Program-made: the position numbers and the translations under genes
Shown here: positions 38,289-43,536 of the stretch, one piece after another
Position numbering within the stretch: the first letter of the stretch is position 1
Layout of the letters: every line of letters starts with the position of its first letter
Notes under the pieces: model-generated
Told to the model about the DNA's origin: nothing
The model's input: the letters and a program-made list of their open reading frames with translations, nothing else
Database searches by the model: none
Source of the DNA: Arthrospiribacter ruber
GTDB taxonomy: Bacteria; Bacteroidota; Bacteroidia; Cytophagales; Cyclobacteriaceae
NCBI RefSeq assembly: GCF_019343195.1
Contig: NZ_RPHB01000004.1
Coordinates: 372,001 to 436,000 of the forward strand
Direction: 5' to 3'
Length of the DNA stretch: 64,000 nt

Positions 38289-39455
38289 TTATAAGCGAAT
38301 TCCCCTATACAGTTCCTTCATTCCTGAAGTAAAAAAGGGCCAAAATGGGACTGAGTTCCTGATTTTAAACTCTTCCCAAAAACCGCTTTCATTCGCCAAA
38401 AATGCCAAGATACGTTCAGGATCATTCCCCTTGAACAAAAGACTGAAGAGCTCCTCCCCTTCTATCTTTTTGTCCAACAACACATCAAGCAAAGTCATAT
38501 CATACCATTGGAACATTTTGTCACGCCAAGATAAAGTTACCAAGGGAGACTCTCCTTTCTTTAATGCACCTACAATTCTACTTACCTGATCTTGTACAAA
38601 CTGGAAAGTATAACCCGAACTGGCCTTTGTATGTCCTCCTGCTGTCCCAATGTTGATGATGCGCTTTTTCTCTCCCACATACCTGGGAAACTTTGCCTTT
38701 GACATTGGAATTACACCAAACTCACGGTGCAAAATTTTATAATCATCAAGTTGTAAATTATTCTTAATGTACTCTCTCAAAGCAATCTCATAAGATGATT
38801 TTCCCAGTACATTTCTCGAAAAAAGGGTGTATTCCACCAGAGCCTCATTTTCTGTAATAGGAAGCATATACATGAAAGTAGTGCCATGAAACTGAGAAAC
38901 TGTAAAATCCATCAAGGTCCCTACTTCAGCATCAAACACTGGTTGCTCACATTGAATAAACCAACCCATAAAGTGCTGTAATAAAGTATTTTCTTCACCC
39001 ATAATTGGGTAAAACAAAGAAGTTGAGTTAAACACAAAATCCGCCGTGTAGGTATTATTTTCCGTTTTGACAAAAGCTCCATTTTCGGAATCTCCAATTT
39101 CTTCAATCTTCTCTTTTAGAAACTCTACATTTGGAAATCCAGCAACAAAATCCAATACATGCCTGTAAAAATCTCCTGATTGTATCATTTTGTAACGATA
39201 TTCCCTCAAGGCAAATTCCCGGGTCACTGATGGAGAAAAAAAACGAAGGCTACTCCATTGCTTGCTGATCAACTGTTCAAAAGGACCATTATCACGTTCC
39301 CAAAAACACCAAGTTCTGTCATTTTGATTTTTTTGGGACTGATCTATCACTAAAACCCTTTTTTTACAGAACTCTTCTTCTGTCAATAACCTGTACAACA
39401 GGCTCAAACCTGCCAAACCAGAACCTGCAAAGATGTAATCATAATTCTTAGACAT
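38289..39455 (-). CDS. crtY: Lycopene beta-cyclase (CrtY family)
   Basis: A 388-residue flavoprotein from ATG 39455; ATG 39476 would add seven residues. The FAD-binding motif AGSGLAGLSLLYRL lies at the N-terminus, followed by VLVIDQS, NDRTWCFWE (a CrtY hallmark) and YVFNST-type strands. IGTAGGHTKASSGYTF (about 275) is another conserved CrtY region. It cyclises the ends of lycopene to beta-carotene, implying a carotenoid-pigmented organism. Other crt genes are not adjacent. Confidence 0.93.
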   Translation of the reverse strand: MSKNYDYIFAGSGLAGLSLLYRLLTEEEFCKKRVLVIDQSQKNQNDRTWCFWERDNGPFEQLISKQWSSLRFFSPSVTREFALREYRYKMIQSGDFYRHVLDFVAGFPNVEFLKEKIEEIGDSENGAFVKTENNTYTADFVFNSTSLFYPIMGEENTLLQHFMGWFIQCEQPVFDAEVGTLMDFTVSQFHGTTFMYMLPITENEALVEYTLFSRNVLGKSSYEIALREYIKNNLQLDDYKILHREFGVIPMSKAKFPRYVGEKKRIINIGTAGGHTKASSGYTFQFVQDQVSRIVGALKKGESPLVTLSWRDKMFQWYDMTLLDVLLDKKIEGEELFSLLFKGNDPERILAFLANESGFWEEFKIRNSVPFWPFFTSGMKELYRGIRL

Positions 39456-39476
39456 GAATATGGATTTATTTAACAT

Positions 39477-39785
39477 TCAATATTACTATAAATTAAGGAT
39501 AGTGTTTGCCCCATTGTACAAAACAAGTAGTAAGCCTGAATATTTTCGATCAATCTTGCCCAAGAGTTTAAGTCCAAAGTATACTTTCTCAGTTTTTTAA
39601 AAATATCATAGGCCCCCACTACCTTTCTAAGCTATAAATCAAGTTAAAGTAATAATGGAAATAGCAAAGCTCAAAAAACGTAAAAGTCCTTCCCTTCTAA
39701 CAAACATATTAGAAATCCTTCAAAATCAGGAGGAAACAATGCCAAGAAGGTAAATTATTTTCACAATTGAGGATTGGACCGGTTT
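39477..39785. other. Intergenic region, nothing firm
   Basis: Spacer between crtY and the tRNA/GIY-YIG array. A 32-codon plus-strand ORF (39655-39753) is present but has no support beyond being open. No promoter or hairpin of note is seen. Confidence 0.4.
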
Positions 39786-39920
39786 TTATGTTGGTTTTCT
39801 ACCTGTATACCCTTTGTGATGGCGGTTATGTTTCTCTAAGCGTTCCTCTGGATTGTGAGATACACCTACGTAAAAGCTTTTATCCTTCAGCGATTGCAGT
39901 ATGTAGACAAAAAAGACCAT
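39786..39920 (-). pseudogene. GIY-YIG nuclease gene, copy 1, truncated
   Basis: The first 43 codons are identical to copies 2 and 3, from ATG 39920 through KGYTGRK. Identity with the repeat ends at about 39794 and the frame closes after two unrelated codons. The active-site Tyr and Arg region is kept, but the part with the conserved Glu (TEALKREN) is lost. This is the broken downstream end of the 367-bp tandem repeat. Confidence 0.85.
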
Positions 39921-39923
39921 AAA

Positions 39924-39954
39924 TGAAAAAAGTCTCAGATATGACTGAGACTTT
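39924..39954 (-). terminator. Terminator after tRNA-Asp-like copy A
   Basis: Minus strand: AAAGTCTCAG / CTGAGACTTT, a perfect 10-bp stem with 6-nt loop and following T-run. Confidence 0.85.
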
Positions 39955-39955
39955 G

Positions 39956-40047
39956 CGGAATAGCCTGTCCCGTGAAACGGGAGACGGGACTCGAACCCGC
40001 GACCTTCCCGAGGACTCGGGACAGGCATTCTAACCAGCTGAACTACC
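39956..40047 (-). pseudogene. tRNA-Asp-like copy A, anticodon arm replaced by palindrome
   Basis: It matches the intact tRNA-Asp in the D-arm, T-arm and 3' end, but the 5' acceptor strand is missing. The anticodon arm is replaced by TCCCGAG-TC-CTCGGGA (40006-40021), and a second palindrome TCCCGT-TTC-ACGGGA (39968-39982) is inserted near the 3' acceptor strand. No GTC anticodon remains, so it cannot act as tRNA-Asp. Confidence 0.85.
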
Positions 40048-40287
40048 TTTGATTAAATTTTCAATGAATACCCTGCTTTTCTGGGCCTTGATAAAGTTTT
40101 CTCTTTTAAGCGCTTCAGTTTTTGTTGGAAAGGTCTCAGTATAAGCCAAAACCCAAGGTTGTTTTCTACCTGTATACCCTTTGTGATGGCGGTTATGTTT
40201 CTCTAAGCGTTCCTCTGGATTGTGAGATACACCTACGTAAAAGCTTTTATCCTTCAGCGATTGCAGTATGTAGACAAAAAAGACCAT
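40030..40287 (-). CDS. GIY-YIG nuclease family protein, copy 2
   Basis: An 85-residue single-domain protein of the UPF0213/YhbQ type, identical to copy 3. VYIL and YVGVS form the two short strands of the GIY-YIG core, followed by the conserved Arg in NPEERLEKHN and the metal-binding Glu in TEALKREN. ATG 40287 is the natural start; a longer frame to 40395 only adds translated tRNA sequence. The last codons (GSSAG, stop TAG at 40030-40032) lie in the D-arm region of tRNA-Asp-like copy A. Such proteins are DNA nucleases; this one's target is unknown. Confidence 0.75.
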   Translation of the reverse strand: MVFFVYILQSLKDKSFYVGVSHNPEERLEKHNRHHKGYTGRKQPWVLAYTETFPTKTEALKRENFIKAQKSRVFIENLIKGSSAG

Positions 40288-40290
40288 AAA

Positions 40291-40321
40291 TGAAAAAAGT
40301 CTCAGATATGACTGAGACTTT
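40291..40321 (-). terminator. Terminator after tRNA-Asp-like copy B
   Basis: Same 10-bp stem AAAGTCTCAG / CTGAGACTTT with T-run as the other repeat units. Confidence 0.85.
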
Positions 40322-40322
40322 G

Positions 40323-40414
40323 CGGAATAGCCTGTCCCGTGAAACGGGAGACGGGACTCGAACCCGCGACCTTCCCGAGGACTCGGGACAGGCATTCTAA
40401 CCAGCTGAACTACC
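40323..40414 (-). pseudogene. tRNA-Asp-like copy B, anticodon arm replaced by palindrome
   Basis: Identical in design to copy A, 367 bp away: palindrome TCCCGAG-TC-CTCGGGA at 40373-40388 in the anticodon position and TCCCGT-TTC-ACGGGA at 40335-40349 near the acceptor stem. The 5' acceptor strand is absent because the GIY-YIG gene joins the tRNA sequence there. Confidence 0.85.
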
Positions 40415-40654
40415 TTTGATTAAATTTTCAATGAATACCCTGCTTTTCTGGGCCTTGATAAAGTTTTCTCTTTTAAGCGCTTCAGTTTTTGTTGGAAAGG
40501 TCTCAGTATAAGCCAAAACCCAAGGTTGTTTTCTACCTGTATACCCTTTGTGATGGCGGTTATGTTTCTCTAAGCGTTCCTCTGGATTGTGAGATACACC
40601 TACGTAAAAGCTTTTATCCTTCAGCGATTGCAGTATGTAGACAAAAAAGACCAT
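40397..40654 (-). CDS. GIY-YIG nuclease family protein, copy 3
   Basis: An 85-residue protein identical to copy 2, with all GIY-YIG motif residues. It starts 36 nt after the 3' end of the intact tRNA-Asp at 40690 and just past a terminator hairpin, so its expression may depend on readthrough. The stop codon TAG lies at 40397-40399, inside the D-arm of tRNA-Asp-like copy B; the sequence GGTAGTTCAGCTGGTTAG is both tRNA and coding (Gly-Ser-Ser-Ala-Gly-stop). Confidence 0.78.
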   Translation of the reverse strand: MVFFVYILQSLKDKSFYVGVSHNPEERLEKHNRHHKGYTGRKQPWVLAYTETFPTKTEALKRENFIKAQKSRVFIENLIKGSSAG

Positions 40655-40657
40655 AAA

Positions 40658-40688
40658 TGAAAAAAGTCTCAGATATGACTGAGACTTT
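40658..40688 (-). terminator. Terminator of the tRNA-Thr/tRNA-Asp operon
   Basis: Perfect 10-bp stem AAAGTCTCAG / CTGAGACTTT with T-run, directly after the intact tRNA-Asp at 40690-40763. Confidence 0.88.
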
Positions 40689-40689
40689 G

Positions 40690-40763
40690 CGGAATGGACG
40701 GGACTCGAACCCGCGACCTCCTGCGTGACAGGCAGGCATTCTAACCAGCTGAACTACCACTCC
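40690..40763 (-). tRNA. tRNA-Asp (GTC), copy 1
   Basis: A 74-nt cloverleaf with acceptor GGAGTGG / CCATTCC, D-arm TTCAGCTGGTTAGAA, anticodon loop CTGTCAC (anticodon GTC), T-arm with GGTTCGAGTCC and discriminator G. CCA is not encoded. Identical to the copy at 40959. Confidence 0.95.
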
Positions 40764-40788
40764 TTTTGTTTTTAATAACTCAACTGTT

Positions 40789-40842
40789 GCGACCTTCCCG
40801 AAGACTCGGGACAGGCATTCTAACCAGCTGAACTACCACTCC
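40789..40842 (-). pseudogene. tRNA-Asp 5'-half fragment with palindrome (d)
   Basis: The 5' acceptor strand and D-arm of tRNA-Asp are intact, then palindrome TCCCGAG-TC-TTCGGGA (40796-40811) replaces the anticodon arm; the T-arm and 3' acceptor are absent. A 79-bp repeat relates this fragment to the next one. Confidence 0.8.
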
Positions 40843-40867
40843 TTTTGTATTTAATAACTCAACTGTT

Positions 40868-40921
40868 ACGACCTTCCCGAAGACTCGGGACAGGCATTCT
40901 AACCAGCTGAACTACCACTCC
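40868..40921 (-). pseudogene. tRNA-Asp 5'-half fragment with palindrome (e)
   Basis: Same structure as the fragment 79 bp to the left; palindrome at 40875-40890. The spacer between them (TTAATAACTCAACTGTT) is also repeated after the fragments at 41197. Confidence 0.8.
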
Positions 40922-40958
40922 TAATTATCTTTTTTTAATTTGATGATAAACAAATTTG

Positions 40959-41032
40959 CGGAATGGACGGGACTCGAACCCGCGACCTCCTGCGTGACAG
41001 GCAGGCATTCTAACCAGCTGAACTACCACTCC
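40959..41032 (-). tRNA. tRNA-Asp (GTC), copy 2
   Basis: A 74-nt cloverleaf identical to the tRNA-Asp at 40690-40763, with anticodon GTC and discriminator G. It lies in the middle of the fragment array. Confidence 0.95.
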
Positions 41033-41094
41033 GTAAAATTGAACTTTTTAAAATAAAACCAATTCACTTGAAGTTCAATACAAGCAAATTTTAG

Positions 41095-41171
41095 CGGAAT
41101 GGATGGGACTCGACCTGGCGACCTTCCCGAGGCCTCGGGACAGGCATTCTAACCAGCTGAACTACCACTCC
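41095..41171 (-). pseudogene. tRNA-Asp-like full-length copy with palindromic anticodon arm (g)
   Basis: Both acceptor strands (GGAGTGG / CCATTCC) and the D-arm are present, but the T-loop is altered (GTCGAG for TTCGAG) and the anticodon arm is TCCCGAG-GC-CTCGGGA (41125-41140). It has no GTC anticodon. Confidence 0.82.
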
Positions 41172-41196
41172 TTTTGTTTTTAATAACTCAACTGTT

Positions 41197-41250
41197 GCGA
41201 CCTTCCCGAGGACTCGGGACAGGCATTCCAACCAGCTGAACTACCACTCC
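41197..41250 (-). pseudogene. tRNA-Asp 5'-half fragment with palindrome (h)
   Basis: 5' acceptor strand and D-arm, then TCCCGAG-TC-CTCGGGA (41204-41219); one D-loop base differs from the intact gene. Confidence 0.8.
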
Positions 41251-41280
41251 TAATAACTTCAATGAACAGAATTCTAACCA

Positions 41281-41333
41281 GCGACCTTCCCCAGTACTTG
41301 GGACAGGATTCTAATCAGCTGAACTACCATTCC
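41281..41333 (-). pseudogene. tRNA-Asp 5'-half fragment, most diverged (i)
   Basis: The acceptor strand reads GGAATGG and the D-arm has a change; the palindrome is imperfect (41288-41303). It is the oldest-looking member of the array and lies directly after tRNA-Thr in transcription order. Confidence 0.72.
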
Positions 41334-41347
41334 TAAAGCTTAAAATG

Positions 41348-41420
<73 letters not shown>

Positions 41421-41462
41421 CTTTTTTACTATTCTTTCAACTCTTTCGCTGAAAACGTGGTG

Positions 41463-41493
41463 CAAATATATGGGGATTGATTAACGGTGCAAA
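41463..41493 (-). promoter_or_regulatory. Promoter of the tRNA-Thr/tRNA-Asp operon, consensus match
   Basis: The minus strand has TTTG (41490-41493), exactly 19 nt, then TATATTTG (41463-41470), a full match to the Bacteroidota sigma consensus. The predicted start is about 35 nt upstream of tRNA-Thr. Confidence 0.8.
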
Positions 41494-41547
41494 GGTATTT
41501 TAAAAAAAAATAAGGAGTCAATACGCATCCCCTTATTTATGAGCCAT

Positions 41548-43536
41548 TTAAAATTCCCTAATAATTGAAAGTTTTTTCTTCAACTTCTCGATTTCGTTTT
41601 CTGCCTTGATAATTTTTTCATCAAACTGATCTTTCAATTTATCTGCAGTTTTCGAAGAAGCAAAAAACTCTAAATTATTTTTCCAAAGAGTGATGTTGTT
41701 TTCAAGATCAGAAATCTGCTTTCTTATCCCATGTTCCTTTTTGTTCAATACCCTGTTTGCATTAGGATCTGCCTGAAGCTTATTTAAATTAAGCCTGAAC
41801 AAGAATTCATCTTTGTCAGTACCTTCTATACCAAGTTTCTTTACATAGGTGTCGACGGCCTCATTAAACTTGGAAAGCACTTCTTTCATGTTTTTACGGG
41901 GAACAAAGCCAATTGAATTAAATTTTTCAATAAAACCTTCTAAGCTTTCTTCAGATAAACCCTCCCCCTCTGCGGAAGACTGTATCTCAGAAATAAGATC
42001 TTCTTTCAATTTAAGGTTGTTCTCAAACTCTTTATTTACCTGTTTATTGGCATTTCTTCTATTTTCAAAAAAAGTATCACAGGCAACTTTAAATTTCTTA
42101 TACAGATCATCCCTGTATTTTTCCGGAGTAGGACCGATTTTTTTCCATTCCTGCTGAAGATTAATAAGCTTGGAAGATGTTTCCTGCCAATCAGTATTAT
42201 CCATCAAGGCTTCTGCCTGTTGTATCAGTTCTTCCGCCCTTTTTTTATTCTGAAGCCTTATCTCATCAAGTTCTTTAAAAAACTGATTCTTGTTGTGGAA
42301 AAACTGCTTAAAGAAACCCCAAAACTTCTTATTGATTTCCTTTCCTGCTTCCCTTGGAACAGGACCGGTACTTTCCCATTCTTTTTGAATAGCAAGCACT
42401 TCTTTTGTCTTTACATTCCATTCTTTTATTTTACTGGCAGTGAAATCTTTATATTCAGAAAGCTTTTCAATTAATTTCTCTTTCTGAATCAGGTTTTCTT
42501 TAAAAACTTCCTTTTGACTATCATAGTACTCTTTCCTTCGATCATAAACTGCATCCGAGGCAGTCTTAAACTTTTGCCACAAAGCTTCTTGTTCATCCCT
42601 TGGGACCGGTCCTATGTGCTTAAATTCCTCATGTAGGTCATTTAGAGACTTAATAGCTTCCTTTAAATCATCCAATCCAATTAGGGCTTCTGCTTTTTCA
42701 CAGATTTCCAGTTTATGCTCCAGATTCTTTTTTCTATCTAGCTCCTTTAACTCAAAATATATACTTCGGTTGTCATAAAACCTATCCATAAGGGCATTAT
42801 AGGAGGCCCAAAGGCTACGATTTTGGGAACTTGGAACAGGGCCGATTTTTTTCCACTCTTCTTGGATATTCTTTATAGTACTTATGCTATGAGTAGTTTC
42901 TTCTCCATCGACAAGCTCTCTAAGCTTATCTAAAATTTCATTTTTAGCCTGAAGATTTTGTTCCTTTTTCTTTTCCTGTTCTTTGAGAAAATTTGACTTT
43001 TTTTCTCTGAAATCATGATATGCTGCAAAAAACAATTTATCCTCATCCTCAGACCTATATTGGAAATCATCGGGATCCCCTCCATTCTCTATAAATTCCT
43101 TATGGGCATTTTCCTTCTCCTTATTATAAATCAGATCAAAATGGCTTTTGATATCATGGATTACAGGATCAATTTTCAGGTATTTTTCAGTAGCTATCAA
43201 TGATTTTAAAGCATTTAACAGCTCTGTTTTTGAGTATTCTGAATAATCAACTTCTTCAATCTCGTCCTCATGATCGGAATCGTCTGCGTTTTCTTCCCCA
43301 TCATCTTCGGTCTTTTCCGAAATTTGAGCTTGAGTATTCTCAACAACTTGGCTATCAGATTCTACCTTTTCAGAAACTGTTTCTAATGATTCATCTTCAG
43401 CCTTCTCATCATCAGTAGAACTTTCAGCCTTAGCAGCATTTTCTTCGTTTACCTGGTTTATTTCACTACCACCATCTACCTTTTGATCTATGTTGGTCAC
43501 CTTGTCCTGTTCAGACATTTCCTTATCCTTGTCCAT
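41548..43536 (-). CDS. DUF349 repeat protein
   Basis: A 662-residue, highly charged helical protein. The first 105 residues are very acidic and low in complexity (Glu/Asp/Ser-rich). The rest carries about five DUF349 repeats, recognised by recurring EWKKIGPVP or EFKHIGPVPRDE followed by LW-x-x-F/Y and a D-x-x-x-x-RK/N-R motif, with coiled-coil linkers. DUF349 proteins are of unknown biochemical function; nucleic acid or protein binding has been suggested. Its C-terminus runs into the tRNA operon promoter region. A -7 box TACTTTTG lies at 43572-43579. Confidence 0.88.
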   Translation of the reverse strand: MDKDKEMSEQDKVTNIDQKVDGGSEINQVNEENAAKAESSTDDEKAEDESLETVSEKVESDSQVVENTQAQISEKTEDDGEENADDSDHEDEIEEVDYSEYSKTELLNALKSLIATEKYLKIDPVIHDIKSHFDLIYNKEKENAHKEFIENGGDPDDFQYRSEDEDKLFFAAYHDFREKKSNFLKEQEKKKEQNLQAKNEILDKLRELVDGEETTHSISTIKNIQEEWKKIGPVPSSQNRSLWASYNALMDRFYDNRSIYFELKELDRKKNLEHKLEICEKAEALIGLDDLKEAIKSLNDLHEEFKHIGPVPRDEQEALWQKFKTASDAVYDRRKEYYDSQKEVFKENLIQKEKLIEKLSEYKDFTASKIKEWNVKTKEVLAIQKEWESTGPVPREAGKEINKKFWGFFKQFFHNKNQFFKELDEIRLQNKKRAEELIQQAEALMDNTDWQETSSKLINLQQEWKKIGPTPEKYRDDLYKKFKVACDTFFENRRNANKQVNKEFENNLKLKEDLISEIQSSAEGEGLSEESLEGFIEKFNSIGFVPRKNMKEVLSKFNEAVDTYVKKLGIEGTDKDEFLFRLNLNKLQADPNANRVLNKKEHGIRKQISDLENNITLWKNNLEFFASSKTADKLKDQFDEKIIKAENEIEKLKKKLSIIREF

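What the first reader, a model, noticed from the sequence alone, without database searches (positions are those of the whole stretch)
39786..40763. GIY-YIG nuclease gene fused at its 3' end to a tRNA D-arm and amplified as a 367-bp tandem
The last codons and the stop of the nuclease gene (GSSAG-stop) are the tRNA-Asp sequence GGTAGTTCAGCTGGTTAG. The gene therefore sits as an insertion replacing the 5' acceptor strand of a tRNA copy, right after an intact tRNA-Asp and its terminator. Two complete copies encode identical proteins. This resembles a selfish nuclease unit that targets the tRNA gene and uses it as integration site; the altered anticodon arm in the flanking tRNA copies might protect them from cutting. 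The last idea is speculation.
Basis: partly seen in the sequence, partly recalled or inferred. Interest (0 to 1): 0.85.

Follow-up and report, generated by a model that had tools for sequence, protein, structure and literature searches.

The report
Nuclease gene family parasitising tRNA genes
Bacteroidota bacteria carry many very small nuclease genes, most of those sampled lying beside a tRNA gene and often followed by a damaged second copy of it, with lineages of the nuclease keeping largely to one kind of tRNA; they likely spread as selfish DNA that cuts and recopies tRNA genes.

Summary
Two identical 85-codon GIY-YIG genes lie in a 367-bp tandem behind an intact tRNA-Asp and its terminator. 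Their last five codons and stop are tRNA-Asp nucleotides 6-23, continuing into a tRNA copy with a palindrome in place of its anticodon arm. The same genome does this at tRNA-Val and tRNA-Ala. The pattern is phylum-wide: 79 of 89 best-scoring loci examined lie at a tRNA or remnant. Nuclease lineages cluster by isotype (30 changes, shuffled mean 55.9; 25, 45.7); of 48 Val-type loci with an intact upstream tRNA, 47 have tRNA-Val. In one genus the same tRNA-Val site is occupied in 6 species, empty in 12 and undecidable in 4. The protein is under purifying selection. Most likely these are chromosomal, isotype-addressed homing cassettes working like phage SegB, with duplicated tRNAs as recombination arms. 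Cleavage and mobility are inferred. The protein has no separate DNA-binding region and is closest to UPF0213/SLX1 nucleases, so it is not filed as a SegB-family member. The hairpin marks are unexplained; a test that the marked arm follows the nuclease lineage failed.

The parts
40397..40654 (-). GIY-YIG nuclease gene, copy 1 (85 aa; stop in the tRNA-Asp D-loop TAG)
40030..40287 (-). GIY-YIG nuclease gene, copy 2 (identical protein)
39786..39920 (-). third copy, truncated after about 42 codons
   Evidence: match to residues 1-43
40689..40763 (-). intact tRNA-Asp (GTC) directly upstream of nuclease copy 1
40663..40688 (-). terminator-like hairpin between tRNA-Asp and nuclease copy 1 (repeated at 40296-40321 and 39929-39954)
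40322..40414 (-). degenerate tRNA-Asp copy: 5' acceptor strand replaced by the gene, anticodon arm replaced by TCCCGAGTCCTCGGGA, a second hairpin inserted before the 3' acceptor strand
   Evidence: Rfam tRNA 23.5 bits, below the 29-bit cut-off
39955..40047 (-). second degenerate tRNA-Asp copy, after nuclease copy 2
40958..41032 (-). second intact tRNA-Asp
40789..40921 (-). two 79-bp-spaced half copies of tRNA-Asp (5' half plus TCCCGA hairpin)
41094..41333 (-). three further degenerate tRNA-Asp copies with the hairpin (imperfect in the last)
41347..41420 (-). tRNA-Thr at the head of the cluster; the only sigma-70-like consensus match of 39700-41500 lies just upstream at 41465-41493

Best explanation
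The gene belongs to a phylum-wide family of single-domain GIY-YIG nucleases found at tRNA genes, and each unit likely works as a homing cassette for one tRNA isotype, copying itself into unoccupied copies of that tRNA gene after the nuclease cuts them. Shown by sequence: the order [tRNA + terminator]-[nuclease]-[altered tRNA copy], at some loci with the same terminator again; stop codons supplied by the tRNA; clustering of nuclease lineages by isotype; occupied and empty orthologous sites; purifying selection. Inferred: the nuclease, made by read-through of the tRNA terminator, breaks the tRNA gene. The left end of the break invades the donor's intact tRNA, synthesis runs through terminator, nuclease and second tRNA copy, and that copy captures the right end. 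The recipient keeps a whole tRNA under its own promoter and gains the cassette, with no need for homology beyond the tRNA and its terminator. Repair out of register between sister copies would give the head-to-tail arrays, as reported for phage T6 SegB. The second copy need not be a working tRNA, so it can lose its 5' strand to the nuclease gene and carry a hairpin in one arm.
For: Own genome: same anatomy at tRNA-Asp, -Val and -Ala with three different nucleases. Relatives: 49 of 99 places against 8 of 358 controls. Phylum: 79 of 89 loci, 95 of 127 places at a tRNA or remnant; 73 of 127 against 26 of 460 controls for the 3' end. Isotype clusters on the nuclease tree: 30 changes against shuffled mean 55.9, 0 of 200 as low, 'no tRNA' counted as a group; labelled rows alone, 25 against 45.7, 0 of 300; 47 of 48 Val-type loci with an intact upstream tRNA are at tRNA-Val. 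One genus: tRNA-Val beside the marker gene in 22 of 30 loci, 6 occupied, 12 empty, 4 undecidable; at least 4 changes on the marker-gene tree. In L266 the same terminator flanks the nuclease on both sides and stands once in the empty L277. Same tRNA-Asp site with collinear neighbours but nucleases 34% alike over 59 aa: L045 and L098. tRNA-Thr site: of 18 judgeable relatives one, G020, has a full nuclease, with tRNA and terminator duplicated. dN/dS 0.10-0.15 within arrays and 0.15 for L171/L178. Invariant Y6, Y17, R27, H31, E63. Weak PHROGs matches to 'homing endonuclease' families for the Asp (4.8e-4) and Ala (2.4e-5) proteins, none for Val. SegB precedent: PMC13096335.
Against: No cleavage, transfer or expression data. 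The protein is only the catalytic domain, with no separate DNA-binding region as the length of SegB suggests (221 aa), so how it would recognise one tRNA gene is unknown. Closest solved structures are UPF0213 and the structure-selective SLX1, I-TevI far behind. The intact tRNA beside the gene looks unprotected, so self-cutting must be limited somehow. Which arm of the second copy is altered does not follow the nuclease lineage (18 changes; shuffles 18.6 and 17.6). Some loci are plainly inherited with their neighbours (23 of 155 same-isotype pairs share a neighbouring ORF), so clustering by isotype is partly descent, and the changes may be losses. No relatives in IMG/VR by pattern or in plasmids.
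Confidence: 0.58

Rival explanations
1. Passenger model: a resident small nuclease gene beside an ancestral tRNA was duplicated with it by ordinary unequal crossing-over and is inherited vertically; it does not move itself.
For: Neighbouring ORFs are shared in 23 of 155 same-isotype pairs; direct tRNA repeats alone favour tandem expansion; the GSSAG junction is kept at 65-96% protein identity.
Against: Many isotypes carry the same anatomy; the same site is occupied or empty within one genus; the same site holds different nuclease lineages; nuclease dN between L252 and L270 (0.106) is below that of the neighbour gene (0.121) although between sisters L252/L254 it is about seven times higher (0.061 against 0.009), which hints at transfer; synonymous sites are saturated, so this is weak.
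Confidence: 0.17
2. Structure-guided nuclease: an SLX1-like enzyme cuts hairpin or cruciform DNA formed by tRNA genes and by the perfect palindromes of the altered copies, and so drives expansion and reshuffling of tRNA repeats, for the element's or the host's benefit.
For: Nearest folds are UPF0213 and SLX1. 63 of 79 altered copies carry a foreign palindrome; in Val-type copies 172 of 174 stem cells are Watson-Crick with TA/CG covariation at pair 2 and variable loops.
Against: Does not by itself explain isotype-bound lineages; SLX1 needs a partner protein (recalled); such palindromes are common elsewhere in this genome (97 against 1 for the reversed control).
Confidence: 0.17
3. RNA-level system: the nuclease is a toxin that cuts one tRNA, and the hairpin-marked tRNA copies are transcribed decoys or antitoxins, as repeat RNA plus terminator plus nuclease in type III toxin-antitoxin loci.
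For: Repeats, terminator, then nuclease resembles that order (type III comparison recalled); altered copies keep several tRNA arms; isotype pairing would follow.
Against: GIY-YIG enzymes are known as DNA nucleases (recalled); many copies have lost the 5' strand or have a broken T arm; the gene is absent from 12 of 18 judgeable sites in one genus.
Confidence: 0.08

Closest known systems
SegB of T-even phages (free-standing GIY-YIG homing endonuclease in the phage tRNA cluster)
   Same: GIY-YIG catalytic domain; gene among tRNA genes with its stop 5 nt before tRNA-Arg in T4; in T6 SegB drives tandem amplification of tRNA-Tyr plus segB, with microhomology between tRNA 5' end and segB 3' end (PMC13096335: abstract, found passages and sections 10 and 12 read).
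   Different: 221 aa against 85 aa and no significant pairwise similarity (E 1.1); phage, not chromosome; the paper reports no preference for isotypes, here lineages cluster by isotype; no marked second tRNA copies are described in the parts I read.
UPF0213 proteins and SLX1 nucleases
   Same: Best sequence and fold matches in the PDB.
   Different: SLX1 chains are much longer and act on branched DNA (titles); I recall no report of UPF0213 members at tRNA genes; the sister branch here (17 rows) is not at tRNAs.
Integrase-borne islands at tRNA genes (recalled, no call)
   Same: Intact tRNA on one side, a tRNA remnant on the other.
   Different: No integrase; the only gene is an 85-codon GIY-YIG nuclease; the remnant is nearly the whole tRNA.
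Repeats of the E. coli tyrT tRNA locus (recalled, no call)
   Same: Tandem units that contain part of a tRNA behind a tRNA gene.
   Different: No nuclease gene.

Membership tests
GIY-YIG nuclease superfamily (PF01541) | Match to the catalytic domain profile over the cut-off | tested here: met
   64.5 bits, cut-off 22.6
GIY-YIG nuclease superfamily (PF01541) | Conserved tyrosines, arginine and glutamate (assignment as catalytic recalled) | tested here: met
   Y6, Y17, R27, H31, E63 invariant in 15 rows; model mean pLDDT 91.2
Free-standing homing endonuclease (SegB-like) | ORF not inside an intron or intein | tested here: met
   In 39400-41600 only tRNA hits reach a family cut-off; no intron family up to E 0.1
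Free-standing homing endonuclease (SegB-like) | Occupied and empty alleles at one site | tested here: met
   6 occupied, 12 empty, 4 undecidable of 22 tRNA-Val loci in one genus; shown for the Val type, not for the window's Asp type
Free-standing homing endonuclease (SegB-like) | Separate DNA-recognition region besides the catalytic domain | tested here: not met
   85 aa, PF01541 covers residues 3-72; SegB 221 aa
Free-standing homing endonuclease (SegB-like) | Site-specific double-strand break and biased inheritance | not testable with these tools
   needs purified enzyme and crosses
tRNA-targeting integrative element | Site-specific recombinase gene | tested here: not met
   No other long ORF in the 367-bp unit
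Type III toxin-antitoxin | Endoribonuclease toxin neutralised by the repeat RNA | not testable with these tools
   Fold is GIY-YIG; toxicity not testable
Known anti-phage defence protein | Match to a PADLOC model | tested here: not met
   0 families at E 0.001

The most novel reading that the evidence does not exclude
A new class of minimal selfish element, [nuclease + marked second tRNA], in which each lineage is addressed to one tRNA isotype and uses the 75-bp tRNA itself as both target and recombination arms; the hairpin that replaces one arm of the second copy is a working part that marks it as already occupied.
Probability: 0.3. Interest if true: 0.92.

Novelty: new variant of a known kind. 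Interest (0 to 1): 0.82.

Why it matters
Homing endonucleases of tRNA genes are known from phages; here a phylum of bacteria appears to carry something like them on its chromosomes, at more than ten tRNA isotypes, sometimes in arrays. If they cut tRNA genes, they would be an 85-residue, isotype-addressed nuclease system, a source of tRNA copy-number change, and a cause of wrong tRNA annotation (ARAGORN calls some marked copies Lys, Glu, Cys or SeC). Occupied and empty sites in one genus make homing directly testable.

Tried and rejected
Idea that the altered arm of the second copy is a property of the nuclease lineage (self-protection at its own cut site): tested on a 61-row tree, not supported (18 changes; free shuffles 18.6, 138 of 300 as low; within-isotype 17.6, 213 of 300). 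Phage origin: an IMG/VR pattern scan with the Asp protein found none; tblastn in phages gave 12 records under 60% identity, ten Rhizobium and two Staphylococcus phages, not followed; plasmids none. Intron remnant: no intron family. Defence gene: none. Assembly artefact: arrays also occur in a one-contig genome (G189, three copies at two sites), but the own genome's Val array ends at contig ends (C2/C11). Paper searches for the pattern in print (held open-licence library only); only PMC13096335 was close, the rest I saw as listings. PMC2330249 (SegB, 2008) is not held and is known to me only as cited there.

Weak points of the counts: loci were taken from the best-scoring matches, not at random; the tRNA databases were built from the same loci; three isotype labels (L051, L003, L044) were set by hand and 'SeC' was read as Met; 'Lys' labels of remnants are largely marked Val copies miscalled by ARAGORN; places include fragments of one gene; the stem count picks the best-pairing offset and so leans to pairing; remnants were limited to copies with a recognisable tRNA 3' end; most between-species dS values exceed 1, so those ratios (0.03-0.19) are rough; the names 'ABC transporter' and 'DUF349' for the two marker genes are my reading, no family search was run on them for that.

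Full report
What is there. On the minus strand, an intact tRNA-Asp (40689-40763) is followed by a terminator-like hairpin (40688-40663) and, 8 nt after its stem, by the ATG of an 85-codon GIY-YIG gene (40654-40397). Its last codons GGT AGT TCA GCT GGT and stop TAG are nucleotides 6-23 of tRNA-Asp; the sequence goes on as a tRNA-Asp whose anticodon arm holds TCCCGAGTCCTCGGGA in place of the normal CCTGTCACGCAGG, with a second hairpin before its 3' acceptor strand. The 367-bp unit is repeated, with a truncated third copy. Upstream lie a second intact tRNA-Asp and several marked half or whole copies up to a tRNA-Thr. Outside this cluster the own genome has no match to tRNA-Asp above 77%. The only sigma-70-like consensus match in 39700-41500 precedes tRNA-Thr (other promoter types not covered).

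Same genome, other tRNAs. Of 11 PF01541 matches, the small nucleases at C2/C11 and C17 repeat the plan at tRNA-Val and tRNA-Ala: gene behind a tRNA or a marked copy and its terminator, gene end inside the next tRNA copy, anticodon arm of spare copies replaced by TTCCGA..TCGGAA or TCCCGA..TCGGGA. The Val and Ala proteins are each 43% identical to the Asp protein. A fourth small gene (C20) has no tRNA within its 3.2-kb locus.

Relatives. 35 of 59 genomes searched (own one included) match the Asp protein. With five own places and 94 places from 80 fetched regions, 49 of 99 have tRNA-like sequence at the gene's 3' end against 8 of 358 control stretches. On a 92-row tree a supported branch of 17 rows (about 98 aa) has no tRNA label, while 59 of the other 75 rows do; isotypes cluster (30 changes, shuffled mean 55.9, 0 of 200). 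Phylum-wide, 92 of 148 genomes (own one included) match at 1e-8. In 89 loci (29 returned, the own one left out, plus 60 fetched) 79 loci and 95 of 127 places lie at an intact tRNA or remnant; 73 of 127 have it at the 3' end against 26 of 460 controls. Ten of the 80 relative regions hold two or three copies spaced 346-442 bp, and L199 holds eight. Median distance from tRNA end to the protein match is 48 nt (n = 97). Where the gene end overlaps an intact tRNA (15 cases), the stop codon ends at tRNA position 9-10 in 6, at 22-24 in 7 and at 13-14 in 2.

Named genomes. A Val-type alignment found 70 loci, mostly Flavobacterium, also Polaribacter, Pedobacter, Chitinophagaceae and other Bacteroidota records (one record is titled Bifidobacterium, a MAG). 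Of 48 with an intact tRNA within 150 nt upstream, 47 are tRNA-Val and 1 tRNA-Pro; 63 of 70 have tRNA-like sequence at the 3' end; in 38 of 70 the stop, by sequence context, is the TAG that stands at tRNA positions 8-10. Close homologues of the window protein come from Indibacter, Mongoliitalea and Mongoliibacter; 10 of the 18 fetched of 31 end in GSSAG.

Occupied and empty sites. In one genus a gene that I read as an ABC transporter marks a tRNA-Val site: 40 of 61 genomes match, 30 loci were examined, 22 have the tRNA, 6 carry the nuclease (L266 apparently broken, L252 two copies, L270 three), 12 are empty, 4 cannot be judged (contig end or masked). Occupancy needs at least 4 changes on the marker-gene tree, gains or losses. 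In L266 the same terminator stands on both sides of the nuclease, and once in the empty L277; in L267 the two terminators differ. At a tRNA-Thr site beside a gene that I read as DUF349, 20 of 29 examined relatives have the tRNA, two of them cut off within about 220 nt; one of the 18 others, G020, has a full nuclease, between tRNA-Thr plus terminator and a marked tRNA-Thr plus nearly the same terminator, and G026 has a fragment. L045 and L098 share collinear neighbours and tRNA-Asp but hold nucleases 34% identical over 59 aa. L089 has a nuclease in the 384 bp between the shared-gene match and tRNA-Pro, a distance of 107 bp in L104, which has another lineage behind the tRNA.

Selection. dN/dS is 0.10-0.15 within arrays (dS 0.07-0.18) and 0.15 for L171/L178; between species 0.03-0.19 with dS mostly above 1 or not computable. 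Between L252 and L270 nuclease dN is 0.106 and neighbour dN 0.121; between the sisters L252 and L254 they are 0.061 and 0.009. This hints at transfer but is weak.

The marks. Of 71 remnants with a recognisable 3' end, 57 have a perfect palindrome of arm 6 or more, against 24 of 71 intact partners and 309 of 1588 control windows. 63 of 79 copies have a palindrome foreign to the tRNA, the longest most often in the anticodon arm (37) or T arm (20). In Val-type copies 29 distinct arms give 172 Watson-Crick cells of 174, with TA and CG alternating at pair 2 and loops of varying length. The arm chosen does not follow the nuclease lineage. TCCCGA palindromes are common in the own genome (97 against 1 for the reversed control). 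Their role is open.

What it works like. SegB of phage T6 cuts within tRNA genes and amplifies tRNA-Tyr plus segB in tandem, with microhomology between the tRNA 5' end and the segB 3' end (PMC13096335; abstract, passages, sections 10 and 12 read). T4 segB stops 5 nt before tRNA-Arg. The present proteins share the domain family only, are shorter by about 136 residues, and match UPF0213 and SLX1 best; PHROGs gives weak 'homing endonuclease' hits for two of three. I therefore say it works like SegB and do not file it in that family. The proposed copying route, with tRNA copies as the two recombination arms, is inference.

Noticed in passing
window 40789-41333: A series of half tRNA-Asp copies (5' half plus hairpin, no T arm; two spaced 79 bp) without nuclease genes between them; marked tRNA-Asp copies also stand at the same tRNA-Thr site in another genus (L123).
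   Followed up: partly
own genome, pattern TCCCGAN{0,12}TCGGGA: 97 short perfect palindromes of this type genome-wide against 1 for the reversed control; several recur as identical sequences, so other repeat families contribute.
   Followed up: partly
L199 (G111:C34:5500-11300): Eight tandem Met-type nuclease copies with no intact tRNA called in 5.8 kb.
   Followed up: no
L081, L174, L285, L321: ARAGORN calls hairpin-marked tRNA copies as tRNA-SeC, -Lys, -Glu or -Cys, so genome annotations may hold false tRNA genes here.
   Followed up: partly
L006 900-2300: The fourth small GIY-YIG gene (sister branch, no tRNA) lies among many copies of another dispersed repeat (CTTGTCATTTTGAACGAAG...).
   Followed up: no
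window 40030-40395: A 121-aa ORF call starts inside the altered tRNA copy and fuses its translation to the nuclease; gene callers may choose this longer start.
   Followed up: no
G000 contigs C2 (end) and C11 (start): The Val-type array stands at two contig ends, probably one array split by assembly.
   Followed up: no
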